Of a DNA stretch of 64,000 nt, positions 14,400 to 64,000 are shown in pieces. A program made the position numbers and the translations under genes. The DNA comes from Imbricaverruca yamaguchii (lineage: Eukaryota; Arthropoda; Thecostraca; Neoverrucidae). The notes under the pieces were generated by a model. It ran no database searches and was not told the DNA's origin. It saw nothing but the letters and a program-made list of their open reading frames with translations. The DNA is taken from contig JAOTOL010001642.1 in NCBI GenBank assembly GCA_034440575.1, positions 3,102,501 to 3,166,500 on the forward strand, read 5' to 3'. Numbering within the stretch: position 1 is the stretch's first letter; every line of letters starts with the position of its first letter.

Positions 14400-14664
14400 G
14401 GGCAGCGATAAGACGAATTTGAACTGCGCACGGCCGAACCTGACCAGCCCTTCCTCCCGTCGATGGACGTACCTGACAAACCTTCCCTCCAATCGACAGA
14501 CATACCTGACAAACCTTCCATACCGTCAATGGACGAACCTGACAAACCTTCCCTCGCGTCTACAGACGTACCTGACAATCCTTCTCTCCCTTCGATGGAC
14601 GTACATGACAAACGTTCCGTGCCGTCGACAGGCGAACCTGACCGACCTTCCCTCGTGTCGACAG
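14400..14664 (+). repeat. 33-bp acceptor-edge array of Sema2a
   Basis: About seven 33-bp units lead directly into the exon that starts at 14,665. Each unit has the first ~18 exon bases (RYGAACCTGACNAACCTN type) preceded by acceptor-like GTCGACAG or TCTACAG. Some copies have lost the AG (CGATGG). The unit is eleven codons and the exon frame stays open back through the array, so upstream acceptors could add eleven-residue blocks without shifting the frame. Confidence 0.9.
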
Positions 14665-14935
14665 GCGAACCTGACCAACCTGCCGCGCACCGAGTTCGTG
14701 CCGGGTATCGGCAACGGGATCGCCAAGTGTCCGTTCGACCCGGACGACAACTCGACCGCCGTCTGGGTAGAGCACGGCAACCCGGGCGGCCTGGCCGGCC
14801 TCTACTCGGGCACGGTGGCCGAGTTCACCAAGGCCGACAACGTCATCTTCCGCACCGACCTCTACAACCTGACCACCAAGCAGCGCGAGTTCATGTTCAA
14901 GCGGACCATCAAGTACGACAGCAAGTGGCTGGACA
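14665..14935 (+). CDS. Sema2a: Semaphorin-2A, first visible exon (Sema domain)
   Basis: Encodes 90 codons plus one base of the Sema beta-propeller. The exon opens ANLTNLPRTEFVPGIG and includes IAKCPFDPDDNSTAVWVEHG, LYSGTVAEFTKADNVIFRTD and FKRTIKYDSKWLD, which match the fly Sema-2a family block by block as I remember it. Acceptor is GTCGACAG/GCG and donor is CTGGACA/GTAAGT (phase 1). N-glycosylation sequons NLT, NST and NLT are visible. Sema-2a is a secreted repulsive guidance cue read by plexin B. The signal peptide and about 150 N-terminal residues are missing, so this is an internal exon of a partial gene. An exon-edge array lies immediately upstream. Confidence 0.96.
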
Positions 14936-15094
14936 GTAAGTGATGCGCTCGCGGAGCGGGTTGGAAGAGCGCGCCTGCGACGAGCTGCGGTGTCGTTTGG
15001 CGCATGGTGGAGCGTGGTCCTGTATGACATGGTACTATGTGGTGTAATCTGGCCTGTGTGGCAAACTTTGAGCTGGCAGGATTGTGGTAATCTG

Positions 15095-15285
15095 CGGGTG
15101 AGTAGTCCAGGTGCAGGGTGTTCGCCTCCCAAGCGAAAAGTTGTGGGGTCGAACCTCATTTATCGCTGCTGTTTGCCCACGACCAATGAGCATGAGAGAT
15201 TGGCAAAATCAATCGTGATGATGAATGGCTAGATGACCAAGTTCGTCAACTCGTCGTTGAACTAAGTAACCAACCAAGTATGATG
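15095..15285 (+). mobile_element. tRNA-derived SINE candidate
   Basis: An anticodon-arm-like segment (TTCGC, loop CTCCCAA, GCGAA) is followed by a B-box-like GGGTCGAACCTC at about 15,151. A tail GAACTAAGTAACCAACCAAG ends near 15,280. Head and tail together suggest a roughly 190-bp tRNA-derived SINE, in the intron after the exon ending at 14,935. No target-site duplication was established. Confidence 0.5.
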
Positions 15286-16357
15286 ACCTTAGCAGCCCGC
15301 CATACTTGGTTGGTGGCTTGCTGAAGTTGTTGGTGCAGTTTTGGCAGTGCAGTTGTTATTTCGCCGCCGGTTGCGCCGCCACATAGCTTTAGCGGTGATG
15401 AACACACTGACTCCTATCACTGTTGTTGCCAGTAGGGCGGTAGATCGGTCATCTCGTAGTGGCAGCAGTGGTGGCAGGCAGCTGCTCATGTCATTTACGG
15501 TACGGAGTATTCACTGCCTACCTGCGACCCCTGGCATTGGCTGTACTCGAGCATGACGTTTTATATCAGAGTTTCATCCCACATGCATGTGCGTTGTTAA
15601 ATATGGCGTTGCTTTGTGTAGGTATATCATCCCATATGTGTATACGTTGCTCTCGTTGTGGCTTTGTGCGCTCGATCAGCTGGTATTCAATAATAACCAA
15701 GGTTTCAACGACCGGTGTCCTTTTATTTAATCGATTAAGCTCTGGGCTTGTTCTCAGAGACCATTTACTCCCAGCTGCGGTGTTAGCTACAACTTAGGTT
15801 CCATTGTAAATTGCACAAATGATTCCAAGAATACCGGCCGGCCTGGGGTATCGTTTGAACACGGCGCCGACGCTCCATACCGCAGCTACCCGCTGTCGTC
15901 GCTAGCACGACTGAAATCTGAGCAACGTTTGCGCCACGCGGTGTCCATTGGGCCGGCGGAGGAGAGACGGTGTAAACGCCTCTGGCAGTGTCCTCTCGTG
16001 CCGCGTCGTCAGCCGACGCAGAGTTGTTCAAGAGTCTCGCCGTATCGAGATTGTTGGTGTGTGTTTTCCCTGCCTTTGTCGCGAGTCAGTTGCATCAATG
16101 GCCTCCACTCAGCGGCGATACAGCGTCGATTTCGATGTTTAGTGTCGGTTCTCGGCGGTAGTTTTTCCAGAGTTTGGTGTTTGAGTTGCGCTTAGGGTCG
16201 CTTTGCTGTGCTAGTATGCCCTCGTCACCACACTCGACTTCATTCAGGTTGTGCAAAAGAAAGTTGACGAAGGTGATTAGTGCAATAGTCAGGTCGGCTC
16301 TGCATCCGGTAGATCGGCGTGCCAATTTCGCGTGGCGTTGGGTCGTTATCGTGGGGA

Positions 16358-17010
16358 TTGTCCGCAGCAGCCGACTGTGTCGTCATTGCGGGCGTGTCCT
16401 GTTTTGTCATTATTGTGGGCGTGCCCTCTTGTGTCGCTGTGGGGCGTGTCCCGTCGTGTCGCTATTGTGGTGCGTGTCGTGTTGTATCGTTAGTATGGGG
16501 CGTGTCGTGTTATGTCGTTAGTATGGGGCATGTCATGTGTCGTTAGTATGGGGCGTGTCGTGTTGTGTCGTTAGTATGGGGCATGTCATGTGTCGTTAGT
16601 ATGGGGCGTGTTGTGTTGTGTCGTTAGTATGGGGCGTGTCATGTGTCGTTAGTATGGGGCGTGACATGTGTCGTTAGTATGGGGCGTGTTGTGTTGTGTC
16701 GTTAGTATGGGGCGTGTCATGTGTCGTGAGTATGCGGCGTGACATGTAGCGTCGTCAGTATTGGAGGTGTCGTGTGTCGTTAGTATGGGGCGTGTTGTGT
16801 TGTGTCGTGAGTGTGGGGCGTGACATTTAGCGTCGTTAGTATGGGGCGTGTTGTGTTGTGTCGTTAGTGTGGGGCGTGACATTTAGCGCCGTTAGTATGG
16901 GACGTGTTGTGTTGTGTCGTTAGTGTGGGGCGTGACATTTAGCGCCGTTAGTATGGGGCGTGCCACGTTGTGTTGTTGACATGCGGCGTATCCACTGCAG
17001 CCGACTGTGC
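16358..17010. repeat. ~27-bp intronic array of TTAGTATGGGGCGTGT type
   Basis: About twenty degenerate units of roughly 22-32 bp. The array is flanked on both sides by CAGCCGACTGTG (near 16,366 and 16,996). That word and the unit core TTGTGTCGTTAGTATG resemble the start of the next exon (CCGCAG/AGCCGAACTTTGTGGC, then GTCGTATG), so it may be a diverged acceptor-edge array. The link is weaker than for the other arrays. Confidence 0.75.
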
Positions 17011-17068
17011 TCCTATGTGTTGAGCCTATCGTCGTGGCGAGTGACTCATTTCGCTGTTCCTACCGCAG

Positions 17069-17171
17069 AGCCGAACTTTGTGGCGTCGTATGAAATCGGA
17101 GAGTATGTCTACTTCTTCTTCCGCGAGACGGCGCTCGAGTACATCAACTGTGGCAAGGCCATATACTCCAG
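17069..17171 (+). CDS. Sema2a: Semaphorin-2A exon (Sema domain)
   Basis: 33 codons joined in phase 1 to the preceding exon, giving WLDKPNFVASYEIGEYVY followed by FFFRETALEYINCGKAIYSR. This is a highly conserved stretch of class 2 semaphorins. Acceptor CTACCGCAG/AG, donor TCCAG/GTGAGA (phase 2). The last ~35 exon bases and the donor are repeated twice in the intron that follows. Confidence 0.97.
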
Positions 17172-17330
17172 GTGAGATCTAGTCGGCCACATCAACTGTG
17201 GCAAGGTCATAAACTCCAGGGCTATATGATCAGCATGGTCGAAGCGCCCTAAAACCTCATATACTCCGGGTGAGATCTAGTCGGCCACGTCAACTGTGAT
17301 AAGGTCATACCCCAAGTGAGATCTGGTCCG
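17172..17330 (+). repeat. Donor-edge duplicates of the preceding Sema2a exon, one interrupted
   Basis: Two further copies of the exon end (ATCAACTGTGGCAAGG..CTCC) plus GTGAGATCT follow the true donor at 17,172. The extra donors sit at about 17,270 and 17,316. The first copy is interrupted at 17,222-17,257 by sequence containing GGTCGAAGCGCCCTAAAACC, which resembles the SINE tail seen elsewhere. The second copy is decayed. Confidence 0.85.
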
Positions 17331-19210
17331 CCACTGCATGTGCGACGACGCAGACGGTGACTCGCTGTATTGGTGAGGTGTTCGCGTGCGAGCAATGGAG
17401 TCGCATACGCGAATTGGGAACTTGAGGTCGTGTCGAATGCGTTGTCGTGACACCACACTGGAACTGCACTCGCTCGTTATTCAGACAACGAGGGTCTCGC
17501 TAGTGCTCGTTATTTGTTGCGGTGGGCCCAGCTGGCCACTCGACAACTTCGTGGGGTGTGCTGCCGCATTGGCGGGTCGTTAAGCGTGCGGTTGAATACA
17601 TACTTGTTGGGCTAGTTCACAGCAAAATGGTAGCATCACGAGATACGTCACAAGCTTTTATATGTGATGACGTTAAGCCATTTAAACAGCTTTTCGAAGT
17701 GTATCCGTTTATTTAAATAGTTATCTTTTTGCGACATCCACGCCTTGTCCATGTTTGTGCCCTTGCCTGTGTTATAAGCACATTACCAAACGGCATGTGA
17801 CGCATGCACCAAACGACATGTGTCCGTCGTGCTGGATAAGCGGCTGCCTTCCACATTGCTCCGGTAGAACAGCTGTTTCATCGTATTACTGTTGATGCAT
17901 ATTTATCATCGTCATCCTTATTGGAAGCTGTGACTAGTCTTAGATTTATGCCCGGAGGTTTCACGGGTAGAAAATCCATCTGGATCAAGCAAAATAAACA
18001 CCTTGCCGTGTTTGATTTAAGATGTGTTTTTTATGTTCAGTTGATTCGAGTTCACAGTCGAGATCGGGTTCTCTTGTTTTGTGCAACTGTGACGTTCAGA
18101 AATGATCCGGAAGTACCGACCTGTGAGTGATGGTATTTCAGATCCACAACAGCATCACGTCCCCATAACCGTATCACACTGCACTTGCACCCGTCCCCCG
18201 ACCCCTCGTCTGTCCTTTTAGTATATGCCTATTCGTCATCAATCTTCGTGATATCCACTTTATTGGGCACGTAAAGTATCTCCTGTAATACAAGTATTTC
18301 CATCTCCTGTAATATCGTACTTTCTCGCAAACTGCCACGTCTGTGGCTGCTGCCATGTTGCCTGCCGCCGCGCCGTCGTGGTTCCGCCAGCCGACACCAG
18401 GGCGGCGCGGCCGGCGGTTTTGACCGACGCGGCCGGGTCGGAGTCGCGCCGCTTCAATAGGCTAATTCGCGGCGCCTCCATTACGGACGGCACGCCACCT
18501 GTCTGCCGGAAGCGGCAGTCGCGGCGCTTTTCTGGTGACGGGGTCACGCATGGGGTGGCGGTCGGCTGACCCGCCGCCGCCGCTGCCCGAGAGGTCGCCG
18601 CCGCCGCTGCCGGCCCGCCGGCGGCACTGACGGCTTCCGACGGGTGCGTGGGTTGGGGATTTCCGATTGGCCAGAGATCTCCGAGAACGTCGCGGCCGGA
18701 CACAGGGCGCTTGTCTCCCGACGTTCAACGACGACGACACCGACGCGGAGACGCAGCGCGTGAACGCGAGCCGCAGCATGTCTGCCGCCCGGGTGGACTG
18801 TTTTCGACGCACATGTTTGGGCACCGACTGCACGCGTGCCCCGGTTACGAGAGAATCGCATGCGAGGCGGCAGTGTGTCGCCAATGGCGGCTGCTTATCA
18901 CTGAACGAACAACAGCGTGACAACACGAGCAGGCCGTGATGAGGCCGTCGGCAGCGTCAGTAGGGCATCGCCCATGCTATTCGCATCGTCCGCAAGCTCG
19001 TCACCGAGGCGAGGAGCATGTTCTGGCGCCGGCCGGTTGCGGCGGTAATCGGCGGCTGGCCGCATTACTGCGGCGTACTCAGCGTCAAGTGTCGCCCATT
19101 GTTCAGTCCGGTTTCTCACGAGTCGTGCCAATCGTCACGATATTTTGTGGGACGCCACGATGCTTGGCGGGATTGTGCTTGTGTTATGTGGTGCTGTATA
19201 TCGCGTGTGC
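17331..19210. other. Intron, nothing further recognised
   Basis: Intron between the exons ending at 17,171 and starting at 19,896. A GC-rich block lies at about 18,360-18,900 with several open frames on both strands, none with a recognisable domain. Confidence 0.5.
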
Positions 19211-19218
19211 TTATGTGA

Positions 19219-19890
19219 TGGTCTCTTGCAGGGTGGCTCGTGTATGGTCATGTGATTTGTTGCAGGACGGCTCGTGTATAGTCATGCAATCGTCTGTGGC
19301 GCGGTGGATCGTGTTTGGCTATGTGATTGTTTGTTGCAGAGTGGCTGATGTGTGGTCATGCAATAGTTGCAGAGATTCTTATGTGTGATTCTTCGATTGT
19401 CTCCCGAGGGAAGTCACGTGTGTGGTCATGTGATGGTCTGTTGGAGTAGCTCATGTGTGATTAGGTGATGGTCTGTTGGAGTGGCTGATGTGTGGGCATG
19501 TGCTGGTCTGTTGGAGTAGCTCATGTGTGATTAGGTGATGGTCTGTTGGAGTGGCTCGATTGATGTGTGTGTGTGTGGTCATGTGATGGTCTGCTGGAGT
19601 AGCTCGTGTTATACGTGTTATATGTGTGTGACCCGAATGGCTCGTGCGATCAGCTCATGTGATGGTCTGTTGCAGGGTGACTCGCGCGTGGTTAGGTGAT
19701 GATCTGTTGGAGTAGCTTGTATGTGGTTAGGTGATGATCTGTTGGAGTAGCTTGTATGTGGTTAGGTGATGTATGGTCTGTTGCAGAGTGGCTCATGTTT
19801 GGTTAGGTGATGGTCTGTTGCATAGTGGCTCATGTTTGGTTGGGTGATGGTCTGTTACAGAGTGGCTAATGTGTGTTTTTTATCTTCTGT
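19219..19890 (+). repeat. ~36-40-bp acceptor-edge array of Sema2a
   Basis: About 17 degenerate units of the form GTCTGTTGCAG + AGTGGCTCATGTGTGG + TTAGGTGATG end at the true exon start 19,896, where the sequence is CTGTTGCAG/GGTGGCTCGTGTGTG. So the unit holds the acceptor and the first ~16 coding bases. Copies near 19,225-19,340 keep TTGCAG; many central ones read TTGGAG, a weaker acceptor. Confidence 0.9.
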
Positions 19891-19895
19891 TGCAG

Positions 19896-20023
19896 GGTGG
19901 CTCGTGTGTGCAAGAAGGACACGGGCGGAAAGAATATCCTGAATCAGAACTGGGCTACCTACATCAAGGCGCGGCTCAACTGCTCCATCCCGGGCGAGTT
20001 CCCCTTCTACTTCAACGAAATCC
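19896..20023 (+). CDS. Sema2a: Semaphorin-2A exon (Sema domain)
   Basis: 42 codons with a split codon at each end, giving [40 protein letters not shown] and NEI. RVCKxDxGGxxxL..[25 protein letters not shown] is a hallmark run of semaphorins. A glycosylation sequon NCS is present. Acceptor TTGCAG/GGTGG, donor ATCC/GTGAGT. The exon start has been amplified upstream. Confidence 0.97.
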
Positions 20024-20099
20024 GTGAGTTTATTGTGCTGTCGTGTGCTTCGTTTCAGGTGCTGCATTGCGTGGCTTATATGAGTAGAACTGGTGGTCA

Positions 20100-20300
20100 A
20101 TTTGCGGTCGATCATGTGCCCTTATCACCATCAGCGTCACCGTCACTGCTTCCTCGCAGTAATGAACATATTTTACCACTGTCGCTACCACAGATGTCAT
20201 TATCGTCATCATTTTCGTCATCGTCACCGTCGTCGGCACCGCTACTGCTACCACTGTCACCGTAATCATCACTGCCACCACCACCGCCACTGAATCATCT
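20100..20300. repeat. Degenerate CAC/TCA triplet-rich tract
   Basis: About 200 bases rich in CAY and TCA triplets (TCACCATCAGCGTCACCGTC style). Both strands stay open in several frames for this reason alone. Confidence 0.7.
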
Positions 20301-20361
20301 ACATCTACCTGCAATGTCGCGGTCGGAGCTAGTACTGGAATTTATCGGCGTGGCGATCGGA

Positions 20362-20535
20362 TCCCGATGTAGCTGGCAGTGTACTGTTCACCATTGAATC
20401 TCGATGTAGCTGCCAGTGTACTGTTCACCATTGAATCCCGATGTAGCTGGCAGTGTACTGTTCACCATCGAAACCCGATGTAGCTGCCAGTGTACTGTTC
20501 ACCATTGAATCCCGATGTAGCTAGCAGTGTGCCGT
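20362..20535. repeat. 37-bp minisatellite, about four copies
   Basis: Units of the type TCCCGATGTAGCTGGCAGTG followed by TACTGTTCACCATTGAA repeat from about 20,362. I could not tie the unit to an exon edge. Confidence 0.9.
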
Positions 20536-21469
20536 CGGCGATCGGATACAGACGGCGTTGGCAGTGTACTGTTTACGGTCGGATCCCTGTGTGCCTGGCG
20601 GTGTGCTGCCGACGATCGCTGTCCGCCTGGTCAGCTGGCGCGCGTCGTGTGCGTGGCGCGGCGCAATTATTGCCGCCAATGGCGGTCTGCAGCGAGCCGG
20701 CTGCAGTCGACGGCGGCTCGAGCCATCTGGCCACCGGTGTAATGTGTGCTGACTGCCAGACACCGGCACTCAGGACGCGTCGTCGTCGCTAGCGCGCAGC
20801 CCCGTCCCCGGCGATTTCCCCGGGCAGGCACGTGCTGGTACCCCCTCGCTCAGATCCGGAAGTATGTGTTTTCCATCCAGACCTCACTCACTCCGCTGCA
20901 TGTGATGGATGAAGGCCCGCATGTGTCGGGCCAGGCCGGAGATGGCGCAGGAGGCGCACGAGAGTTGCCCCGACCGCTGAGTGTGGACCCCTTGAAATCG
21001 TCGGACAGGCGGTGGCGACGGCCCGGGAGTAACGTCGACCCGATACGCACTCGCGGCCGACGGCGGAAGAGGCTCGCGTGCGTCATCCGTGTCATGTCTG
21101 CGTGGGACTGGCACGGCCGTCGAGGGCCTCGCGGCGCGGTGACCTGGCACCGGCCGGGCGGCGCCCGCTCGTCGGCACCAGGTCTGACGGACCGGCGCGC
21201 GGCCGCCGTGTGGTGGGGCCGTTTCCAGCGGGCGGCGGTGGCGGCGGCGGCGGCGGCGCACGCGGCCGTGCCCTGTGTGGCGGCCGTTAGCCGGCGGCGG
21301 CCGGGCCGGCCCGGCGCCGGTTATCGTGGCCGCCGGCCGATTGCGGGTCGTTAGGCGGCGCCGCCGGCCCGGCGGCGTACCGTGCCGGCGGCGCGGCGAC
21401 GCCGGCCGCGCGCCGCATCGATCTGGCCGCCGGACCCGATCGGAATCGCGCCGCCGACCGGCCGGCGGA
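20536..21469. other. GC-rich intronic stretch
   Basis: Intron between the exons ending at 20,023 and starting at 22,350. Composition is strongly GC-rich with simple GGC runs at about 21,230-21,260. No exon recognised. Confidence 0.5.
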
Positions 21470-21750
21470 CTTTGCCGAGCAAGGCTTGCAATTGTGGCTT
21501 TGCGCGGCCGACTTCGCAACTGCGGCTTCGCTGAGCGGTTCGGAACTGCGGCCTTGCGCCGCCGGCTTCGTAATCGCGGCGGTGCGGAGCAAGCTTTGGG
21601 AATCGCGCCGCTGCCCGGTGAGCTTGGGAATCGCGCCTGTGCGCAGCGAGCTTCGGAATCACTGCTCGTGAAGCCGGCTTTGGGATCGCCACTCGCGGTT
21701 GCGACATTCGAAATCGCGGCTCTGCGCAGCGAAGTTCCCAGTGCTATATA
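21470..21750. repeat. Degenerate ~30-35-bp GC-rich repeat
   Basis: Imperfect copies of a unit with the words GCTTCGGAATCGCGG and TGCGCAGCGAGCTT. Divergence is high and copy number cannot be fixed by eye (about eight). Confidence 0.65.
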
Positions 21751-22349
21751 TTCTCTGCGGCTCGGTATCGGCTCCACGTAACAGCCACACGGCCTGTAAT
21801 ACGGCTCTCGAGTCGCGTATAGTCAGAGCAGCGTCTCTCCATTTACGCTCTTTCATACTCCGAGTGCGCGGCCTTGTCCAGTCGTCCTGAATCCGAATGG
21901 TGCCGCTCGCCGGTAGCGGCAGCTGGCTCGTCGGGACGGGACAAAAACACGCACATCGTGGCTCGATCCTCCACCGACGCTCCCGTAATTCCTGCCCCAC
22001 TCACCTGGATCGGGCGGCACGCCGGTATTTGCCGCTTTGTTGCCTGCAATCAATTACCGGTAATTGGATCGAGAGGTCCGCCTGATTCACAAAACGCTCC
22101 CGTCGAATGGCGACGGACACCGCCCGTTGCAGCGATGGGATTTGTTTGCGATTGATTTCTGAGAGCCGGTGCACCGGTCGCCGACCGACTCCGTGCCGTA
22201 CCGTAACGTGAATGCACGTGTGAAGAGCCGTGTGAAGAGCCGTGTGCCACCGAACTTCGCCGCACACCGAGAAGTTCCCGGCACGGTAAGCGGTGCGCTC
22301 GCTCAGCTGACGCTTTGTGGTTGTTCTGAGTGGATCGGTGTGCTTGCAG

Positions 22350-22462
22350 AGTCGATCTACAAGGTGCCCGGCGACGACACACAGTTCTACGCGGTCTTCA
22401 CCACGTCGATGAATGGGCTGATGGGCTCCGCTGTCTGCTCGTTCACCCTAAGGGACATCCAG
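22350..22462 (+). CDS. Sema2a: Semaphorin-2A exon (Sema domain)
   Basis: Completes a split codon to Q and encodes SIYKVPGDDTQFYAVFTTSM then NGLMGSAVCSFTLRDIQ, ending in phase 0. Matches the family run in which a threonine-rich FTTSxNGLxGSAVCSF strand is nearly invariant. Acceptor GTGCTTGCAG/AG, donor ATCCAG/GTGCGT. Confidence 0.97.
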
Positions 22463-22816
22463 GTGCGTTGTGTAATTTTGTACGGCGCACCGACAGCGCT
22501 GAGTTGCAATTTCCTGCATTCAGGCAGCGTTTTGTTTATGTATCCCGTTGCGTGTTTCTAGCGTGGGCGCTGGCGATTTTGCATTTGTTCTAGTTGTGTA
22601 TTTGTGGTGAGTTGCCGACATATTATACTGGCGGAAGCTACGCTTGTCGTGGCGCTGTGTTGCTTTGTTATTCATCTGTCCCATTTGCGTAATGCACCAC
22701 AGCATGTGAAGTTGATCGTGATAGCGAGCAGAGTAAGCACTACAGTAATCCACGGCAAATTTCATTCAGGTATGCTGTGTGTTAACACCGAGACGTTCCG
22801 TTTTGATGTGTGCCCT

Positions 22817-23872
22817 TGTCCCTATGGAGGACTTCCAGTCGTGTTGTGTCCATGTCGCCATGGAGAATTTCCAGTCGTTTTCTGTGTCCATGTCACCATG
22901 GAGACGGTTAAGTTGTGTTGTGTGCCCATGTCACCATGGAGGATCTTCAGTTGTACTGTATATCCATGTCACCATGTATAACATTCAGTTGTGCTATATG
23001 CCCATGTCACCCTGAATGACATTCAGTTGTGCTGTGTATCCATGTCACCATGGAGGATGTTCAGTTGTGCTGTGCATCCATGTCACCATGGAGGATGTTC
23101 AGTTGTGCTGTGTGTCCATGTCACCATGGAGGGCGTTCAGTTGTGCTGTGTATCCATGTCACCATGGAGGATGTTCAGTTGTGCTGTGCATCCATGTCAC
23201 CATGGAGGATGTTCAGTTGTGCTGTGTATCCATGTCACCATGGAGGACGTTCAGTTGTGCTGTGTATCCATGTCACCATGGAGGACGTTCAGTTGTGCTG
23301 TGTATCCATGTCACCATGGAGGACGTTCAGTTGTGCTATGTATCCATGTCACCATGGAGGACGTTCAGTTGTGCTGTGTATCCATGTCACCCTGGAGGAC
23401 GTTCAGTTGTGCTGTGTATTCATGTCACCATGGGGACGTTCAGTTGTGCTGTGTATCCATGTAACCATGGAGGACGTTCAGTTGTGCTGTGTATCCATGA
23501 CACCATGGAGGACGTTCAGTTGTGCTGTGTATCCATTCACCATGGAGGACGTTCAGTTGTGCTGTGTATCCATGTCGCCATGGAGGACGTTCAGTTGTGC
23601 TGTGTATCCATTCACCTGGAGGACGTTCGTTGTGCTTGTTCCATTCACCATGGGGCGTTCGTTGTGCTGTGTATCCATGTCGCCATGGAGGACGTTCAGT
23701 TATGCTGTGTATCCATCTCACCATGGAGGACGTTCAGTTGTGCTGTGTATCCATGTCACCATGGAGGACGTTCAGTTGTGCTATGTATCCATGTCACCAT
23801 GGAGGACGTTCAGTTGTGCTGTGTATCCATGTCACCATGGAGGACGTTCAGTTGTGCTGTGTATCCATGTGA
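22817..23872 (+). repeat. 38-bp minisatellite, ~27 copies, probable donor-edge array
   Basis: Units of the form CCATGTCACCATGGAGGACG + TTCAGTTGTGCTGTGTAT repeat with little divergence. The first copies (about 22,817-22,850) read GGAGGACTTCCAG then TCGTGTTGTGT. The exon end upstream reads AAGGGACATCCAG then GTGCGTTGTGT. The array therefore looks derived from this exon-intron junction. The donor GT has become TC, then TT in later copies, so these are dead donors. Long reading frames through it (up to 306 codons) are repeat artefacts. Confidence 0.85.
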
Positions 23873-33766: not shown

Positions 33767-33854
33767 GTGAGTACGGTTAAAAATGGACTAAAAATGGATT
33801 TGTCCCCGTGAATATATGTTGATGACGCTATCACACTATTGGCGATTTCCGGTT

Positions 33855-39263: not shown

Positions 39264-39333
<70 letters not shown>

Positions 39334-54551: not shown

Positions 54552-54704
54552 CGGACGATTGGACTCCTTTCGGGCTCTCTCCAGCTGCTCGGACTCGTAC
54601 TGGCTGCGCAGCTGGCGGATAAACTCGGCAGGAACCTCCCACAGCCGGTCACGGTGGCGCACGAGGTTCCGAACCACGCGTGACGTCACAGCGGCGAACT
54701 CGAT
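54552..54704 (-). CDS. conu: Conundrum/ARHGAP18-type RhoGAP exon (end of GAP domain)
   Basis: Read from 54,704 down, 51 codons in phase 0: IEFAAVTSRVVRNLVRHRDR, LWEVPAEFIRQLRSQYESEQ, LERARKESNRP. Matches EFVMAAGTANTMHLLIKYQK and LLWTIPKFIVNQVRKQN of ARHGAP18. Acceptor TTTGCCAG/ATC, donor CGTCCG/GTGAGT. Confidence 0.94.
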
Positions 54705-55183
54705 CTGGCAAAGCAGGTAAATTGTTTTTTAAGGCTTTGGTGGCAGCACACGTTATCGTCACATACCGCCCCATAAATACGATGCAAGCTGAGCGATAAG
54801 AATAATCCCTGTCAACAACGATTCTAAGCAACGGTAAAAGTATCTAATAAGTGATTGTTAATAATATGTGACGACTTAGCCCAATATCATCCCAGTCCCT
54901 GAAGCAAGGTGTAGCGGAGACGACGGGAGCTTAGAATCACGACCACGAATATTCATGGAACAACCTGCCTTGCATCTATATTCCATTCCATTAGTGTATT
55001 CCGATGCGAGTAACTCAACAGCCACATTGTTCACCACATAGGCCAGGATTTGCACCATATAGCACCAGACACACCAAGTCGCAAGTACATCAGGTCGCAT
55101 TTTACACCAGTGGCCACACCAGGTCGCGGTCAGACCAGGTCACACCCGGCGGCCCGGACCGCAGCAGGTCGCGCCGGACCCAC

Positions 55184-55915
55184 CTCGACGCTGATGTCCT
55201 TCTGCCGGCGCTGGCCGGGCCACAGCAGGTTGGGCGCCATGATCATGGACACGTTCTCCAGCGACATCTTGTTGCTCTGCTCGCGCTCGGCCACGGCGGC
55301 CATGAAGGCCAGCAGACGGCGCAGCACGGCGCGGTTGGCGGCCGGCAGCTGCAGGCAGAGCAGCGTCAGCGCGGCCGGCTGACGCGCCGGCGGCAGCGCG
55401 TCCGTGCCGTGGAACGCGTCCATGTTCTCGCCGGTGAGCAGCGGGCGCGGCAGCTCGCGCAGGAACAGCTTGACGAGCGCGGCCACGTCGGCGGCCGAGC
55501 TGCGCCGCAGCGCAGCGTCCACGTCGCCCGGCCGGCTGTAGAAGGCGGCGTCCACCAGCCGGCGCAGCAGCTCCACCTTCTGCTGGTGGCCGGGCACGCG
55601 CAGCAGGCCCTCCTCGAGCAGGCCGCGCCGCTCCAGGTGGCCGAGCACGCGCTCCAGCACCAGCGGCACGGGGCCGCCGTCCGGCTGCCGCAGCCGGTCG
55701 CGCTCCAGCAGCAGCGTCAGCGGCACGCCGAACACGCCGTCGGCGCTGCTGGCGCGCGTGCGCAGACGTTTCCGGCGCGCCTTGCGCCGGCTGTAGCTCA
55801 GCCCGTGCTCGTCGAACAGCGCCGTCAGCTCGATCAGCGCCAGCTTCTGCAGCCGCTTCACGTCCGGCTCGGAGAGGTAGTCGACCAGCGTGCGGCCGAG
55901 CCTGCCCTCCGTCGT
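55184..55915 (-). CDS. conu: Conundrum/ARHGAP18-type RhoGAP, main catalytic exon
   Basis: Read from 55,915 down, 244 codons in phase 0. Residues 1-40 hold LGRTL and LQKLALIELTALFDEHGL, typical of ARHGAP18/28/40. From about residue 60 the RhoGAP domain begins (GVFGVPLTLLLERD). GLLRVPG at about 103-109 carries the arginine finger (codon near 55,600). KLFLRELPRPLL is the second conserved helix, and NKMSLENVSMIMAPNLLW near the end carries the conserved Asn. All catalytic residues are present, so it should stimulate GTP hydrolysis by Rho-type GTPases. In fly, conundrum binds Moesin and acts on Rho1 at the cortex. The exon is very GC-rich; the plus-strand 423-codon frame across it is its antisense shadow. 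Acceptor CCCACAG/ACG, donor GTCGAG/GTGGGT. Confidence 0.96.
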
Positions 55916-56224
55916 CTGTGGGAGGGGGGGGGGTATTGCCACCGTCTTGAGCTTGGGGAGGGGAGATGCTGCCACCCTCTCTGGACTGGATGGAAAGCTT
56001 GCAACAGCCGATGCGCACCCACCCACCCACGAGCTGGGGTTGTCGGAACAGAGTTGAGCGCGCCAAACATAGTGCTCGTGATGGGGCCGGAGTTCCATGA
56101 AAACGCGTCGAGGTGCGTATGCAAGCCATTCGTGGGTCTACTCGTGAGTGTTCCATGTCAGACATGGTCCACTCAGCTCCCACATAATCGAGTGTCCTCG
56201 GTACCAGACATGTCCACCCAGCCA

Positions 56225-56295
56225 TGGGCGCGAATGATCAGATCTGGTCGAAGCGCCCAAATCCCAAATGACTAGCGAACTAACTGATCGAGTGA
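56225..56295 (+). mobile_element. SINE 3' tail fragment
   Basis: GGTCGAAGCGCCCAAATCCC, AAATGACTAGCGAACTAACT: same tail words as the copies at 6,690 and 33,855. Intronic in the RhoGAP gene. Confidence 0.45.
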
Positions 56296-56779
56296 ATCAT
56301 TTTTATCAATGAATTAATTCCACACAGAGGCTTTATCACCATTGGGATGATGAGACGTGATCTGTAATGTGTACCTGAATTATCACTTCACATGGTATTG
56401 TATTGCTTGGAAAGAAGAGACTTCACAATGGTTGCATTTCCCTCGTCATTAATTATTTTGTCTTTATGAGGCTCACGATCTTAACATTCATGTCAATGTT
56501 GGTTTTTGGTTTCGGAGAGTAAACCAAATACTTCGACTAATCACTTTTGTGTACCCTCACATGCGTTATGCTTGGGCTGGCCAAATATAAAGAGCACATT
56601 ACCACCTTACCCCGTTGGGTCTACGTCTAAACGACCAGACTACCACAGGCACTTAGTCGCCAGAGAACACCTTGGAAGCCCACAAGGTGCTAAGCCTGTC
56701 TTCCATATCTTCCATTCATTTCTAAGCCTCCATTCATTTTCTACAACGCAAATCGAAAAAAAATTGAACGTGACAGAAA

Positions 56780-56947
56780 GTGAGGAAGCCAGACAGACAC
56801 CGTGTCTCCCTGTCACATTTCCCCGCTCATCCGCTCCCTGCCCGCTCACCGTACTCCTGACTGGAAGTGAGGAAGCCGCCCCATTCCATGACAGACACCG
56901 CGTCCCCCTGTCACATTTCCCCGCTCGCTCGTTCGCTGCCCCCTCAC
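56780..56947 (-). repeat. ~90-bp donor-edge duplication of a RhoGAP exon
   Basis: Two ~90-bp copies lie next to each other on the 3' side of the exon ending at 56,948. The true junction reads GTCAGGAGCGCG/GTGAGGGG; the copy reads GTCAGGAGTACG/GTGAGCGG with its donor at 56,849-56,848. The rest of the unit (GACAGACACCG, CCCTGTCACATTTCCCCGC on plus) is also shared. Confidence 0.85.
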
Positions 56948-57117
56948 CGCGCTCCTGACGCCACTGGCGGCCTGCTTGACGGCGTCTTTGGTGTCGGACT
57001 TGGAGCCGGAGCGGACGCGCGGTATGTGAAGCTCGGACAGGCCACCGAGCTCGGTGCTGGACCGCTCCGACTGGTGTCGCACCGACCCGAGCGCGTGGAA
57101 CGACACCACCTCGATGC
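56948..57117 (-). CDS. conu: Conundrum/ARHGAP18-type RhoGAP exon (N-terminal half)
   Basis: Read from 57,117 down: completes G, then IEVVSFHALGSVRHQSERSS, TELGGLSELHIPRVRSGSKS, DTKDAVKQAASGVRSA, phase 0 at the end, running into TTEGRLGRTL of the next exon. A low-complexity, basic/serine-rich linker before the GAP region; similarity to the family is weak but both splice sites (CTGTGCAG/GC, GAGCGCG/GTGAGG) and both phases agree. Confidence 0.8.
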
Positions 57118-57173
57118 CTGCACAGGAGGAGCGCGTTGTCAGTGGCGAAGCGCAGCGCAGCGCAGCTCGTCGG

Positions 57174-57240
57174 CGGCCGTAGTAGATCTGCTAGTAGATC
57201 TGGTAGTAGATCTGGTAGTAGATCCGGTAGTAGATTGCCA
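57174..57240. repeat. 15-bp GTAGTAGATCTG repeat
   Basis: About 4.5 imperfect copies, upstream of the RhoGAP exon acceptor. Confidence 0.85.
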
Positions 57241-57344
57241 GACAGGAACCCCAGCAGCTGGCGAACTTTGGGCGAAAATGTATCGGTTTCAAGTTGGTGA
57301 CGTTTAAAAGCGAGGTGCTTACAGATCCACACCTCTTCCCACCA

Positions 57345-57545
57345 GCATTTAGTACTTACGCCTCCTTGTCACCATGCATTCAATACATAAGCCCCCTTTC
57401 CACCCTGCATTCAGTACTTACGCTTCCTTGTCACCCCGCATTCAGTGCTTATGCCCCCTCATCACCCCGCATTTAGTGCTTATGCCCCTCATCACCCCGC
57501 ATTCAGTGCTTATGCCCCCTCATCACCCCGCATTTAGTGCCGGTG
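57345..57545. repeat. ~31-35-bp minisatellite
   Basis: About six units of CACCCCGCATTCAGTGCTTA + TGCCCCCTCAT type. No exon edge matches. Confidence 0.85.
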
Positions 57546-57959
57546 AGCGCGGAAACACTGAGAGGAGTTAGTGGTCACTGGGTTTCCATGTTAGCAATTG
57601 CATGTCTGCAAAGATATCCGCACAGGTACGAACACCAAGCTACCGGTGATTGCGCCAGTGATGGTGAGCGCAGTACCACCTGCACATGGCGCTGCCTTCC
57701 ATTCCAAACAGCGACGGCTATGCCGCACATCTGTGCCCAGGAGCGTTCATTTCTGAAGATTATTGGGGGAGGGTACAATACATGGAAGCAAGATATTTGC
57801 CTAAATGGATTGGAGGTCACACCCTAGGGCACCATGATGCAAGTTTAAATTATTTGGGGATGGGGCAAAGCAAACATAATGGAGCACTTTCCCCCACAAA
57901 AGTATGCAAAACAGCTGTCAACTACAGCCAGGTAGCGAACTGTTCACCACAGCCGGACA

Positions 57960-59660
57960 ACAAACTGTTCATCACGGCCTGATAATAAATTGTCTACCAC
58001 ACTCAGGCAGCAGACTGTCCATCACACCCTGAGAATGAGCTGTCCACCGTAGCCTGAGAGTAAGCTGTCCACCACAGCCTGAGAATGAGCTGTCGACCAC
58101 AGCCTGAGAGTAAGCTGTCCACCATAGCCTGAAGAGTAAGCTGTCCACCATAGCCTGAGAGTAAGCTGTCCACCATAGCCTGAAGAGTAAGCTGTCCACC
58201 ATAGCCTGAAGAGTAAGCTGTCCACCATAGCCTGAAGAGTAAGCTGTCCACCATAGCCTGAAGAGTAAGCTGTCCACCACAGCCTGAGAATGAGCTGTCG
58301 ACCACAGCCTGAGAGTAAGCTGTCCACCATAGCCTGAGAGTAAGCTGTCCACCATAGCCTGAAGAGTAAGCTGTCCACCATAGCCTGAAGAGTAAGCTGT
58401 CCACCATAGCCTGAAGAGTAAGCTGTCCACCATAGCCTGAAGAGTAAGCTGTCCACCACAGCCTGAGAATGAGCTGTCCACCACAGCCTGAGAGTAAGCT
58501 GTCCACCATAGCCTGATAATATGAGCTGTCCACCATAGCCTGAAGAGTAAGCTGTCCACCATAGCCTCAGAATATGAGCTGTCCACCATAGCCTGAAGAG
58601 TAAGCTGTCCACCACAGCCTGAGCATGAGCTGTCCACCACAGCCTGAGAGTAAGCTGTCCACCATAGCCTCAGAATATGAGCTGTCCACCATAGCCTGAA
58701 GAGTAAGCTGTCCACCATAGCCTCAGAATATGAGCTGTCCACCATAGCCTGAAGAGTAAGCTGTCCACCATAGCCTGAAGAGTAAGCTGTCCACCATAGC
58801 CTGAAGAGTAAGCTGTCCACCGTAGCCTGAGAGTAAGCTGTCCACCACAGCCTGAGAGTAAGCTGTCCACCATAGCCTGAGAGTAAGCTGTCCACCATAG
58901 CCTGAAGAGTAAGCTGTCCACCATAGCCTGAAGAGTAAGCTGTCCACCATAGCCTGAAGAGTAAGCTGTCCACCATAGCCTGAAGAGTAAGCTGTCCACC
59001 ACAGCCTGAGAATGAGCTGTCCACCACAGCCTGAGAGTAAGCTGTCCACCATAGCCTGATAATATGAGCTGTCCACCATAGCCTGAAGAGTAAGCTGTCC
59101 ACCATAGCCTCAGAATATGAGCTGTCCACCATAGCCTGAAGAGTAAGCTGTCCACCACAGCCTGAGCATGAGCTGTCCACCACAGCCTGAGAGTAAGCTG
59201 TCCACCATAGCCTCAGAATATGAGCTGTCCACCATAGCCTGAAGAGTAAGCTGTCCACCATAGCCTGAAGAGTAAGCTGTCCACCATAGCCTGAAGAGTA
59301 AGCTGTCCACCACAGCCGGAGAATGAGCTGTCCACCATAGCCTGAGAGTAAGCTGTCCACCACAGCCTGAGAATGAGCTGTCCACCACAGCCTGAGAGTA
59401 AGCTGTCCACCATAGCCTGAAGAGTAAGCTGTCCACCATAGCCTGAAGAGTAAGCTGTCCACCATAGCCTGAAGAGTAAGCTGTCTATCATAGCTTGAAG
59501 AGTAAGCTGTCCACCACAGCCTGAGAATGAGCTGTCCACCAAAGCATGAGAGTGAGCTGTCCACCATAGCCTGAAGAGTAAGCTGTCCACCACAGCCTGA
59601 GAATGAGCTGTTCACCATAGCCTGTGAGTAAACTGTCCACCACAGCCATGGAGCAAGCTT
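57960..59660. repeat. ~26-bp minisatellite, 60 or more copies
   Basis: Units of AGTAAGCTGTCCACCATAGC + CTGAAG with length variants. Higher-order blocks are visible: the order of variants near 58,500-58,700 recurs at about 59,040-59,240. All three minus-strand frames stay open (up to 593 codons), a property of the unit and not a protein. No exon edge matches. Confidence 0.95.
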
Positions 59661-59823
59661 CCCACCAGAGCCGTGCAGCAAGCTGTCCACCACAGCCGGA
59701 CAGTAGGCTGTCCACCAAGGCAGCGAACTGTCCACTACATCCACACAGGTCATGCGCTAAGTCGCGCGTCCACCTGTGTGCACGTCGCACGTCTATCGCG
59801 GCAGCCCGCATCGCGCTACTCAC

Positions 59824-60017
59824 CTGAGGAATCCGCCGGTGTGGAGAAGTGCTTAAACTTGTAGTTTCCAGTTGTTTCGAACAGATTGAGGCTCTTGAGG
59901 GCACGATCGGTGGCGTCGGTTTTTTTCTGGCGCATCTGGACATCTTCACCGGCAGGAGACGATCCAGTATCGTCCTGGTCCAGGGAGATCCGCAGCACGT
60001 GCCGAAACTCGGGCAGC
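59824..60017 (-). CDS. conu: Conundrum/ARHGAP18-type RhoGAP, first visible exon
   Basis: Read from 60,017 down: one base, then LPEFRHVLRISLDQDDTGSS, PAGEDVQMRQKKTDATDRAL, KSLNLFETTGNYKFKHFSTP, ADSS plus one base. It occupies the place of the DVRDIF region of ARHGAP18. Acceptor CGTCCACCAG/G, donor TCCTCAG/GTGAGT; the phase matches the next exon (G then IEVVS). The start codon and about 115 N-terminal residues are beyond the window. Confidence 0.82.
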
Positions 60018-62740
60018 CTGGTGGACGAGGGCAACGTTCACTGTCTGGGTCATCACGTCTATGGTCATAGTGGCCAGCTTCTGATGTAATGGATAATGGC
60101 AATAGCACAACCACATTCGGCTTCCGGGTGGGGTTCAATCACACTGAGGGCGGGGCGATTTTCAAGCTTGAGGTGTGAGGCCCTGGCAGGTTTCTCTGTC
60201 AGCTCCCGCGTCCCACTCCTGTCTCAATGTAAATTAACTTATAATTTAGTGACTGATTCCGGGGCCCGAAAATCCTTCTGTGTTTTTACTTTGAACGGTC
60301 AAAACATTATTCAGCTTAGATTAAATTAGATTAATACTATCTCAACGCAGATGCATAGTTAACACGCACACGGTAGGAGGTAGGGTGACGAAATCGTCCC
60401 AACCCCTTCGTTCGTTTTGCCAAATCTCCAAATCTCCCAAAGTCAAGAAACTGACGAGTGTCGATTTAGTCTACCTAGAAGTAGGAACCTTGGACATATG
60501 ATAGAAAAGTAAATAAAAAGGTCAGTTGGAAATGTTGAAGTTATTAGCATGCAAATTCAAGCGTGCCGGAGGAAATATGTGAAAATTGACAGCGAGATAT
60601 GCGAAACACGCCTATTTCCAAGTACCATTGTCATATTGTTATGCTGGGATTCAGCTATGCTGGTTATGTCTAGCTGTGTTATGTTTCCCATCAAACGTGC
60701 ACATCAGTTAGACAAATGACGTTAAGGCATAAACACGAGAAATGATACCACATTTATCACAGACATAATTGACCTATTATCACAAAATTCACGAATGAGA
60801 GCTCCATATAGAGTCCAGCCACCACGTACATTCGGCGTTTCCAGGTTCCATGATCCGACATCAATGGATGGCGGGTTCGAACTCCCCTCCCCTCTCCTTT
60901 GTCCAGGATGAGCGATTTGTATTGGCTTTCCACTGCGCGTATAACATGAAACCCGCAGAATTTTATCTTCATTAGGTTCACCTCACCGCATTACGGGCAC
61001 GAAATCACTGTTCAAAAGCATTAATGGAAACATAAACTACTTTGTTGTGCAGTAAATAGCTTCATTTAGTAACAATCACTATCATCACGCAAAACAATTA
61101 ACCAACAATAAACGAAAAAATATTTCTTCTTTTTCAAAGGAAGAAATATTTTCCTGAACGTACGCTTAAGGAAGTGGTCTGACTTCGCCAGACAATCCTC
61201 AAAAGGTTGTTTTGCGTGAAGCTTCAGACTCGAGGTGCGAATGCCTACTGACCGTATCTTCAGACTCGCAGTGCGAATGCCTACTACCACCTACCAGTAC
61301 CTGCACTGACTAACCATTTTCAACCTCACTCCTTTCCTCCCGCGACTATTTAACCTGACGCTTTATGTAAACACCGCTGCTGCTGTGCAATATAGGTAAA
61401 GGAGCAAGTTACGTTGATAATTCCGATCAGAAGCGTTTCAAATAGATCGGCATGGCTGTTGCCTGAGAGACACCGCCACTCGCCCGCCGCCTGTTGGTGT
61501 GTGTGGTCAACAAATGAGGATATTTCCAGGAGCGGAAATGTCATCGTGCGTCAATGGATAGAGTCATCGTACGATGGTAAATTTATATTCTCGACCAGAC
61601 CAGGCATCTTCACTTCAGACTAGATTTTATTCGGTCCTCTTCTGAGATTCACTTTAAGCCACCGAGCGGTTTTTCAAAATTATGACCAAGGATAGAAATC
61701 CGGCATATCTTTCCGTTTGTACTTAGTATCGGTGAAGACAAGCAGCAGACTAGGACTAATAATTAGGAATGGCGATAAAAAATATAAAAGGGAGGCCGAA
61801 AACGTACTTCACACCCCCCCCACCCTTACAGTGGCATGGTTAAGTAGGCAGACACTTTTGCCTTGTGCATTCGATATGCATTTATCCCAAAGGCCATATC
61901 AGACGAGGAAGAATAAGATTTGCATGAACATGACTAGCAGCAAAGCACGTTTAAATGCTGGACTGTTGTAGCTCATCATCACAACTAGAACACAGTGGAA
62001 GCTGTTAAAATGGTTACTACTTTGTGAACACCGGACAGTAGCTCATCTTTGCCTATGACACTATACCAGGTGTCGATGCTAACTCGGATAGCATGAGCTT
62101 GTCAGTCAAATTGCGTGGCACCGCCAACAATACCAAAAGCTTATCGTATTATAGTCATATCTCAAGCTGTCGTTCCGCGGCCCAATTTCCGGACAAGGCG
62201 TTGGACGCCCTCTCTCCAGTGGGGCATGAAGACAGCCCACCAGGCACACTTCACAAGGCAGCGTGTGTAAACCATCGTCGCCACGGTCAAGCATGGAAAG
62301 CGTTGTGAAGTGCGGCTGGAATTACAATGCTGGAGGATTGAGACATGCGACATCGAAAGCGGCGACATCTGGAGAGAGAGATTTTGCCATGAGAGCCTTA
62401 CTTCGGAGACTATTACCCGGACATTAGACAACTGTGCGTAATGACACCGGCAGACGTAAATTTGTCAGATAGGCGTAATGGCAGGCAATGCTGAGAAAAT
62501 GTATTTCGGCAGCATCCGGAGCACAAGTCCCAGTCGCTTTTCTCATTCGCGAGTCATTTTTGGTCAATGCCTGTAAACAAAATATGGTCTTCATCACAGC
62601 TTACTAATGATATGCGGCAGCTTTCTTGTCCCACCGTTTCTGGTTCACATTCCTTGGCTGACCTCCCACACCGGATCACTTCCCCCTCCTCGCGTCACCT
62701 CTCCTGGCCAACAGCCCCTTCCAGCCAGCACCTCCCTGCT
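60018..62740. other. Probable RhoGAP intron, no exon recognised
   Basis: About 2.7 kb. A B-box-like GGGTTCGAACTCCCC at about 60,868 may be the relic of another tRNA-derived SINE. I looked on the minus strand for the preceding RhoGAP exon and did not find it. Confidence 0.45.
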
Positions 62741-62749
62741 CTCCACCCT

Positions 62750-64000
62750 CGCCCGCCCACCTGTCCCTCTACTGACCATGCGCGGAGCCCGCGTCTCCCT
62801 GTTCTCCACCCTCGCCCGCCCACCTGTCCCTGACCATGCGCGGAGCCCGCGTCTCCCTGCTCTCCACCCTCGCCCGCCCACCTGCCCCTGACCATGCGCG
62901 GAGCCCGCGTCTCCCTGCTCTCCACCCTCGCCCGCCCACCTGTCCCCCCTGACCATGCGCGGAGCCCGCGTCTCCCTGCTCTCCACCCTCGCCCGCCCAC
63001 CTGTTCCCTGACCATGCGCGGAGCCGCGTCTCCCTGCTCTCCACCCTCGCCCGCCCACCTGTCCCTGACCATGCGCGGAGCCCGCGTCTCCCTGCTCTCC
63101 ACCCTCGCCCGCCCACCTGTCCCTGACCATGCGCGGAGCCCGCGTCTCCCTGCTCTCCACCCTCGCCCGCCCACCTGTCCCTGACCATGCGCGGAGCCCG
63201 CGTCTCCCTGCTCTCCACCCTCGCCCGCCCACCTGTCCCTCTCCTGACCATGCGCGGAGCCCGCGTCTCCCTGCTCTCCACCCTCGCCCGCCCACCTGTT
63301 TCCTGACCATGCGTGGAGCCCGCGTCTCCCTGCTCTCCACCCTCGCCCGCCCACCTGTCCCTGACCATGCGCGGAGCCCGCGTCTCCCTGCTCTCCACCC
63401 TCGCCCGCCCACCTGTCCCTGACCATGCGCGGAGCCCGCGTCTCCATGTTCTCCACCCTCGCCCGCCCACCTGTCCCTGACCATGCGCGGAGCCCGCGTC
63501 TCCCTGCTCTCCACCCTCGCCCGCCCACCTGTCCCTCTCCTGACCATGCGCGGAGCCCGCGTCTCCCTGCTCTCCACCCTCGCCCGCCCACCTGTCCCTG
63601 ACCATGCGCGGAGCCCGCGTCTCCCTGCTCTCCACCCTCGCCCGCCCACCTGTCCCTGACCATGCGCGGAGCCCGCGTCTCCCTGCTCTCCACCCTCGCC
63701 CGCCCACCTGTCCCTGACCATGCGCGAGCCCGCGTCTCCCTGTTCTCCACCCTCGCCCGCCCACCTGCCCCTGACCATGCGCGGAGCCTGCGTCTCCCTG
63801 TTCTCCACCCTCGCCCGCCCACCTGTCCCTGACCATGCGCGGAGCCCGCGTCTCCCTGCTCTCCACCCTCGCCCGCCCACCTGTCCCTCTCCTGACCATG
63901 CGCGGAGCCCGCGTCTCCCTGCTCTCCACCCTCGCCCGCCCACCTGTCCCTGACCATGCGCGGAGCCCGCGTCTCCCTGCTCTCCACCCTCGCCCGCCCA
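62750..64000. repeat. 58-bp minisatellite, ~21 copies, running off the window
   Basis: Units of TGACCATGCGCGGAGCCCGC + GTCTCCCTGCTCTCCACCCT + CGCCCGCCCACCTGTCCC with small length changes. On the minus strand each unit contains GGGACAG/GTGGGCGG, a donor-like junction preceded by an open frame ARVESRETRAPRMVRD. All frames are open through the array (up to 432 codons); none is judged a protein by itself. Confidence 0.95.

What the first reader, a model, noticed from the sequence alone, without database searches (positions are those of the whole stretch)
14400..64000. A recurrent class of minisatellite made of amplified exon-intron boundaries
In two unrelated genes on opposite strands, tandem arrays use as their unit the last or first ~10-45 bases of an exon with the adjoining splice site. 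I see it at Sema2a exons starting 14,665, 19,896, 38,468 and 43,731 (acceptor edges), exons ending 17,171, 22,462, 25,398, 35,589 and 40,454 (donor edges), and at the RhoGAP exon ending 56,948. Units differ in length and sequence (33, ~38, 38, 54, 34, 79, ~90 bp), so this is not one transposon spreading. A process that starts tandem duplication at splice junctions, or selection that keeps only arrays sparing the exon, could explain it. It also fits the tandem-duplication model of intron gain. I know of no described system of this density.
Basis: partly seen in the sequence, partly recalled or inferred. Interest (0 to 1): 0.93.

Follow-up and report, generated by a model that had tools for sequence, protein, structure and literature searches.

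The report
Exon-edge minisatellites in a barnacle genome
In what is likely a barnacle genome, short stretches that include the edge of a gene's coding segment have been copied many times in a row into the neighbouring non-coding DNA, a structure already known from lancelets; in the genes sampled such arrays start near coding-segment edges several times more often than further away, which would mean these edges are hot spots for tandem duplication.

Summary
The observation largely holds: 8 of 35 splice junctions in two genes (Sema2a; a conundrum/ARHGAP18-like RhoGAP) are spanned by tandem repeats; shuffled DNA gives 0.03% per position. Protein matches point to a barnacle. Units come from exons: one unit encodes the exact peptide of three relatives' exons, differing from the exon here. 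The kind is known: "mirages" of amphioxus Adh3, globin, TnC and PGBD5; I saw no arthropod report in the rows my searches listed. Junction preference: plain coverage says no (23% against 26% of intron positions); counting each array once says yes. In 38 exons of one unrelated family, chosen blind to arrays, arrays start within -45..+60 bp of exon edges 4-5.5 times as often as at 60-300 bp, and 2-3 times above the most array-prone GC class. Exon-edge arrays show no sign of being older. I favour biased birth at exon edges, probably tolerated because splicing keeps the exon-attached site. The sample is small; a planned replicate could not be run.

The parts
14665..43808 (+). Sema2a-like gene, last 12 exons (14665-14935, 17069-17171, 19896-20023, 22350-22462, 25275-25398, 30437-30613, 33642-33766, 35438-35589, 38468-38647, 40283-40454, 41282-41365, 43731-43808); 5 more exons lie upstream of the window
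   Evidence: open joined frame and AG/GT ends; 95% to P0001, 84% Pollicipes pollicipes, 79% Amphibalanus; tblastn; upstream exons
52097..60017 (-). conundrum/ARHGAP18-like RhoGAP gene, 7 exons in the window (59824-60017?, 56948-57117, 55184-55915, 54552-54704, 54068-54237, 52966-53138, 52097-52223)
   Evidence: Pfam RhoGAP 1.1e-33; Pollicipes 68%; tblastn; splice sites
14438..14681 (+). 33-bp array ending 17 bp inside exon 1 (acceptor edge, S1A)
   Evidence: TRF; T=75; copies
17146..17334 (+). 2-3 decayed copies of exon 2 donor edge (S2D), offsets +98 and +144
   Evidence: T=42
19213..19908 (+). ~35-37-bp array with repeated TTGCAG|GGTGGCTCGTG-like acceptor of exon 3 (S3A)
   Evidence: TRF; T=20; 11 projected sites, 6 with intact AG
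22450..23870 (+). 38-bp array 330 bp downstream of exon 4; weak similarity to the exon 4 donor edge (S4D)
   Evidence: TRF; T=14.5; gapped score up to 18
25362..25891 (+). 54-bp array, 37 bp exon 5 end + 17 bp intron, 9 intronic copies (S5D)
   Evidence: TRF; T=87; unit 5 encodes the peptide of three relatives
35563..35835 (+). 34-bp array at exon 8 donor (S8D), 7 intronic copies
   Evidence: TRF; T=86
37846..38513 (+). 79-bp array, 46 bp of the unit from exon 9 start (S9A); more diverged 86-bp relatives at 37487-37765
   Evidence: TRF; T=83.5
40446..40880 (+). weak, decayed ~89-bp repeats at exon 10 donor (S10D)
   Evidence: TRF; T=14.5
41066..41271 (+). 53-bp repeat ending 10 bp before exon 11, not spanning
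   Evidence: TRF; block
43614..43777 (+). two-copy ~92-98-bp duplication including exon 12 start; splice site itself not shared (S12A)
   Evidence: tblastn; sequence; T=0
56795..56960 (-). two-copy 98-bp duplication over RhoGAP exon b donor
   Evidence: T=45, exon side 7
53790..54078 (-). weak decayed copies of RhoGAP exon e donor
   Evidence: T=17

Best explanation
These are minisatellites whose repeat unit is a tandemly duplicated exon-intron boundary, the same kind of structure as the amphioxus 'mirages', in a genome that is likely a barnacle's; they likely arise because short tandem duplications start several times more often near exon edges than elsewhere, and they are probably tolerated because splicing is predicted to keep using the splice site attached to the exon. 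Shown: unit content, units unrelated between introns, and an excess of array starts within about -45..+60 bp of exon edges in one independent gene family. Well supported by protein comparison: direction from exon to array. Inferred: that the excess reflects birth rate rather than survival; that the duplications form by slippage or microhomology-mediated repair (not tested); that decoy sites are ignored in vivo. A duplication [exon end | intron start] leaves the protein unchanged if the exon-attached site is used, so selection would not remove it; unequal exchange or slippage would then multiply the unit into the intron.
For: Copies through junctions at 8 of 35, null 0.03% per position. Direction: tblastn with a relative's protein hits array units as extra copies of exon edges; S5D unit 5 encodes PGQCVNDTQTLP as in P0001, Amphibalanus and Portunus, while the exon here reads PGLCVNDTQALP. 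Independent sample: 38 SNF-transporter exons chosen by HMM hit; automatic edges give 9 of 59 junctions spanned, collapsed background 5.6%, P=0.005; array starts per kb of uncovered DNA at T>=16: last 45 exon bp 3.67, intron 0-60 2.66, 60-150 1.33, 150-300 0.47, 300-550 0.78; near (-45..60) against 60-300 in the same loci 4.0x, 4.8x and 5.5x at three thresholds, P<0.001 each; contiguous 264 kb 0.94 per kb at T>=16; against the most array-prone GC class still 2.1-3.1x, P 0.006 to 0.0002. No sign that exon-edge blocks are older: median best-copy identity 0.975 (n=30) against 0.842 (n=234), P=0.075; they are longer, P=0.0002 (some SNF blocks are cut by locus ends). Splicing: P0001 (713 aa), whose longest contig is 3,379 bases, runs without insertion across every Sema2a join in the window, whereas the gene here spans about 121 kb; 37 of 47 decoy sites at seven junctions score below the authentic site.
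Against: Plain coverage shows no excess at junctions (8 of 35 against 26.4%, P=0.74), and the distance profile is flat both raw (20.5% at the junction, 20-31% in the intron) and when copy-weighted at the junction too (6.0% against 5.2-9.0%); I hold that a junction, one ancestral point, should not be copy-weighted, but that is an argument. Further junctions of the same genes: 1 of 15, with only 6 matching exon bases. The second SNF batch alone gives 2 of 28 junctions (P=0.44). At T>=40 the SNF junction excess is only P=0.035. At T>=20 the start rate at 300-550 bp is 1.18 per kb, above that at 150-300 (0.46). Only 14-17 near-edge array starts carry the SNF result; paralogous junctions are not fully independent. 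39 of 47 decoys keep GT/AG and 10 of 47 score at least as high as the authentic site, so correct splicing is not explained by decay. Pollicipes reads PGHCVNDTQALP, sharing the A of the exon here, so the history of that residue is not simple. No RNA from this species was available.
Confidence: 0.57

Rival explanations
1. No preference: the genome is simply full of minisatellites (15-22% of the 264 kb examined), and arrays meet exon edges at the rate expected by chance.
For: Junction coverage 8 of 35 against 26.4% of intron positions; SNF 9 of 59 against 22.9% raw flank coverage; flat coverage profile from the junction into the intron, raw and copy-weighted; 1 of 15 further junctions; 2 of 28 in the second SNF batch.
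Against: Raw coverage counts every copy of an expanded array while a junction is one ancestral point; per seed the background is 5-6%. Array-start density falls 4-5.5 fold from the edge to 60-300 bp in the same loci.
Confidence: 0.26
2. Survival or detection bias: exon-edge arrays are kept or seen longer because deletions reaching into the exon are removed by selection and the exon copy is conserved.
For: Exon interiors are depleted of repeats (2.7% against 26% of intron positions), so selection near exons is real; copies at S2D, S4D, S10D and RhoGAP e are decayed.
Against: The excess is as strong or stronger for the most regular arrays (T>=40); exon-edge arrays show no sign of being older and are longer; wholly intronic arrays at 0-60 bp are also in excess.
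Confidence: 0.12
3. The arrays are selected for: spare splice sites or a regulatory function in splicing.
For: 39 of 47 decoy sites keep GT/AG; the reading frame of exon 5 stays open over 237 codons through the 54-bp array, so decoy use would add peptide repeats.
Against: The 34-, 79- and 98-bp units shift the frame; no unit is shared between introns; 37 of 47 decoys weaker than the authentic site; the closest relative's protein carries no insertion at these joins.
Confidence: 0.03
4. The arrays are traces of intron gain by tandem duplication (Rogers model).
For: Units carry splice sites; the model is established elsewhere (PMC4974935, passages).
Against: Introns 2 and 8 are amplified at both ends with different units, intron 5 only at its donor; the model predicts the same exonic copy at both ends.
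Confidence: 0.01
5. Assembly artefact.
For: A similar amphioxus array appeared aberrantly assembled in a genome draft (PMC3087553, passages).
Against: Units carry different point changes; contigs here reach several Mb; junction-spanning arrays recur on other contigs.
Confidence: 0.01

Closest known systems
'Mirage' minisatellites of amphioxus (Adh3, globins BflGb6 and BflGb9, TnC, PGBD5)
   Same: Tandem units spanning an exon-intron boundary, at 5' and 3' edges, units 10-72 bp (Adh3) and 150-160 bp (globins), many but not all with AG/GT, regular mRNA reported (PMC3087553 and PMC3902484, passages).
   Different: Other phylum; here several per gene and counted against a background, with an excess of array starts near exon edges. 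Length and somatic instability, known at amphioxus Adh3, were not tested here.
[quoted passage not shown]
   Same: Tandem duplication that carries splice signals (PMC4974935, passages).
   Different: There a duplication of an exonic segment creates an intron; here the units lie in introns that carry different units at their two ends.
Dual-specific AGGT splice sites in tandem-repeat genes such as UBC
   Same: Repeat units with AGGT, as in the 54-bp array (PMC10809524, passages).
   Different: There the repeats are coding and the sites are used; here they lie in introns and use is untested.
Ordinary intronic minisatellites
   Same: Tandem arrays of similar period are common in this genome.
   Different: The unit holds an exon edge, so source and direction can be read.

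Membership tests
mirage (exon-intron boundary minisatellite) | tandem unit spans an exon-intron boundary | tested here: met
   8 of 35 junctions at T>=16; gapped copies
mirage (exon-intron boundary minisatellite) | both acceptor and donor edges can be affected | tested here: met
   3 acceptors and 5 donors in the window; both kinds in SNF genes
mirage (exon-intron boundary minisatellite) | many units keep AG/GT signals | tested here: met
   39 of 47 projected sites intact at seven junctions
mirage (exon-intron boundary minisatellite) | regular splicing is not disturbed | tested here: inconclusive
   relative's protein P0001 (longest contig 3,379 bases) runs through the authentic Sema2a joins; no RNA from this species, and whether the relative has the arrays is unknown
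mirage (exon-intron boundary minisatellite) | copy-number differences between alleles or cells | not testable with these tools
   one assembly, no reads
Rogers intron gain | both intron ends derive from one duplicated exonic segment | tested here: not met
   introns 2 and 8 have different units at the two ends; other window introns amplified at one end at most
Rogers intron gain | intron absent in close relatives | not tested
   no DNA of related barnacles reachable

The most novel reading that the evidence does not exclude
Exon-intron boundaries are mutational hot spots for short tandem duplication in animals with very large, diverse populations: in barnacles, as in amphioxus, a sizeable share of all splice junctions sits at the head of a minisatellite grown from the exon edge, and this process enlarges introns while leaving proteins unchanged.
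Probability: 0.4. Interest if true: 0.8.

Novelty: new member of a known kind. Interest (0 to 1): 0.5.

Why it matters
It moves a curiosity of a few amphioxus genes to what is likely a second phylum and gives it a number: 9 of 59 scored junctions in one gene family picked blind to arrays. If the excess of array starts near exon edges holds genome-wide, something about exon edges (transcription, GC content, chromatin, repair) promotes tandem duplication, and introns would have a growth route that starts at their ends. The array units can also preserve older or sister versions of exon sequence, a small fossil record inside introns.

Tried and rejected
Raw coverage as the null: kept and reported, but it counts expanded copies, so I added a one-seed-per-array background and an array-start rate. 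GC content explains part of the excess (start rate 0.44 per kb below 40% GC to 1.53 at 60-70%) but not all. A second blind family (Myosin_head, 72 exon matches) could not be fetched. Other genes of the neighbouring 200 kb were not annotated. SNF exon edges are predicted with a small scoring matrix (22 donors, 22 acceptors), not RNA-supported; hand-picked edges of the first 20 exons gave 7 of 38 (8 of 38), the automatic rule over all 38 exons 9 of 59, dropping 17 of 76 edges with a splice score under 4, at least one of them array-spanned (L040 donor, T=44.5). The GC-matched rates of 1.1, 0.95 and 0.6 per kb used were read between bins by eye; one search uses the highest bin instead. In the second SNF batch flanks are only 600 bases (one side longer in L046), which weakens detection beyond about 500 bp, so the 60-300 bp control was used. 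The uncertain acceptor at 60,017 was left out of the 35 and counted among the 15; the second donor choice at L015 was not scored. The founding Adh3 paper was not held; it is cited through PMC3087553.
Full report
What is there. The window holds the last 12 exons of a Sema2a gene on + and 7 exons of a conundrum/ARHGAP18-like RhoGAP gene on -. Sema2a is 95% identical to an unnamed protein (P0001), 84% to Pollicipes pollicipes and 79% to Amphibalanus, so the genome is likely a barnacle's. It has 767 Mb in 1,430 contigs, and the window lies on contig C1409. Five further Sema2a exons and three RhoGAP exons lie outside the window.

Is the pattern real? I scored every position for the best ungapped copy within 1.2 kb that runs through it. 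Eight of 35 junctions reach T>=16; shuffled DNA does so at 0.03% of positions. One further junction (54,068) passes weakly.

Direction. A relative's Sema2a protein finds array units as extra copies of exon edges. In the 54-bp array all nine units read Q and T where this exon reads L and A (eight of nine also read T for N); unit 5 encodes exactly the peptide of P0001, Amphibalanus and Portunus. Pollicipes reads H and A there. Among the 103 of 120 relatives in which a motif search found the stretch, T stands at the second place in 75 and A in 3; at the first place T stands in 44, Q in 27 and L in 9. The simplest reading is that the units were copied from an older or sister version of the exon. 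Units in different introns are unrelated, and introns 2 and 8 carry different units at their two ends.

More than chance at junctions? Three views. (a) Coverage: 26.4% of intron positions are spanned, junctions 8 of 35; no excess, P=0.74. The coverage profile is flat from the junction into the intron, raw and copy-weighted alike. (b) Counting each array once, because a junction is a single ancestral point while an expanded array fills many intron positions: background 5.0%, P=0.0003. This window was singled out for the pattern, so that P is not trustworthy alone. Further junctions of the same genes (14 outside the window plus the uncertain 60,017) give 1 of 15, with six matching exon bases. 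In a blind family (SNF transporters, PF00209; 97 matches; 38 exons fetched) the automatic rule scores 59 of 76 edges: 9 spanned against a collapsed background of 5.6% (P=0.005) and a raw flank coverage of 22.9%; at T>=40 6 of 59 against 4.1% (P=0.035). The first 20 exons give 7 of 31, the next 18 give 2 of 28. (c) Array-start rate, walking outward from the exon over DNA not yet in an array, which is uniform under no preference: SNF 3.67 per kb in the last 45 exon bases, 2.66 at 0-60, 1.33 at 60-150, 0.47 at 150-300, 0.78 at 300-550 (T>=16); at T>=20 the last value is 1.18, at T>=40 0.48. Near against 60-300 bp in the same loci: 4.0, 4.8 and 5.5 fold at three thresholds, P 0.0009 to 0.0002; in the window 2.3 fold (T>=16, P=0.047) and 3.8 fold (T>=40, P=0.014). 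The contiguous 264 kb has 201 arrays in 213 kb of uncovered DNA, 0.94 per kb at T>=16. GC raises the rate up to 1.53 per kb; against that highest class the SNF excess is still 2.1-3.1 fold (P 0.006 to 0.0002).

Birth or survival? Exon-edge arrays (n=30) have median best-copy identity 0.975 against 0.842 (n=234), P=0.075, and are longer (356 against 126.5 bp, P=0.0002; some SNF blocks are cut by locus ends). There is no sign that they are older, which speaks against mere sheltering or better detection of old arrays. I therefore favour biased birth; this step is inferred. The excess includes wholly intronic arrays at 0-60 bp, so it is a property of the edge region, not of the splice motif itself.

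Why tolerated? A duplication of exon end plus intron start leaves the protein unchanged if the exon-attached site is used. P0001's longest contig has 3,379 bases, far shorter than the 121-kb gene here, and the protein runs through every Sema2a join in the window without insertion, so a close relative splices at these sites; whether that relative has the arrays is unknown, and no such test was made for the RhoGAP gene. Of 47 decoy sites at seven junctions 39 keep GT/AG, and 10 score at least as high as the authentic site. How the right site is chosen is not shown; exon definition is the usual expectation (recalled).

Known or new? [quoted passage not shown] I saw no arthropod report among the rows listed: 5 of 5; 20 of 243; 15 of 3,693; 2 of 2; 3 of 3; 6 of 6; barnacle with minisatellite and intron: 0 papers; 2 of 2; most subscription papers are not in that library. 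The Pollicipes genome paper has no occurrence of 'tandem' or 'satellite' and the Daphnia tandem-repeat survey none of 'splice' in the main text (PMC8917513, PMC3152781, passages). High nucleotide diversity is reported for the barnacle Balanus improvisus (PMC8270832, passages); that amphioxus shares this is recalled.

Verdict. Real, of a known kind, apparently new to a barnacle in the literature I could search, with moderate evidence from one independent gene family that exon edges seed tandem arrays.

Noticed in passing
58015-59717: A 26-bp unit repeated about 66 times fills much of the RhoGAP intron next to exon a; the exon a donor is not spanned.
   Followed up: partly
62732-64000: A 58-bp array with strong C over G skew runs to the end of the window.
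   Followed up: no
25257-25967: The reading frame of exon 5 stays open through the whole 54-bp array (unit of 18 codons), so use of a decoy donor would add a repeated peptide without a frame shift.
   Followed up: no
G000:C1377:510515 and 524571; G000:C1156:843812 and 857258: SNF transporter exons occur as matched pairs on opposite strands about 14 kb apart on two contigs, which suggests inverted duplicate genes.
   Followed up: no
G000:C793:180019, C793:202693 and G000:C1256:13205: Three long, nearly uninterrupted SNF copies with open frames of 715-725 codons, unlike the many-exon genes.
   Followed up: no
G000:C1082:452662, C1376:1866589, C1138:564602: Myosin exon matches of 50-68 residues lie inside open frames of more than 1,000 codons, as expected if stop-free in-frame arrays adjoin them.
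   Followed up: no
39267-39364 and 45540-45606: Long AT/TA dinucleotide repeats.
   Followed up: no
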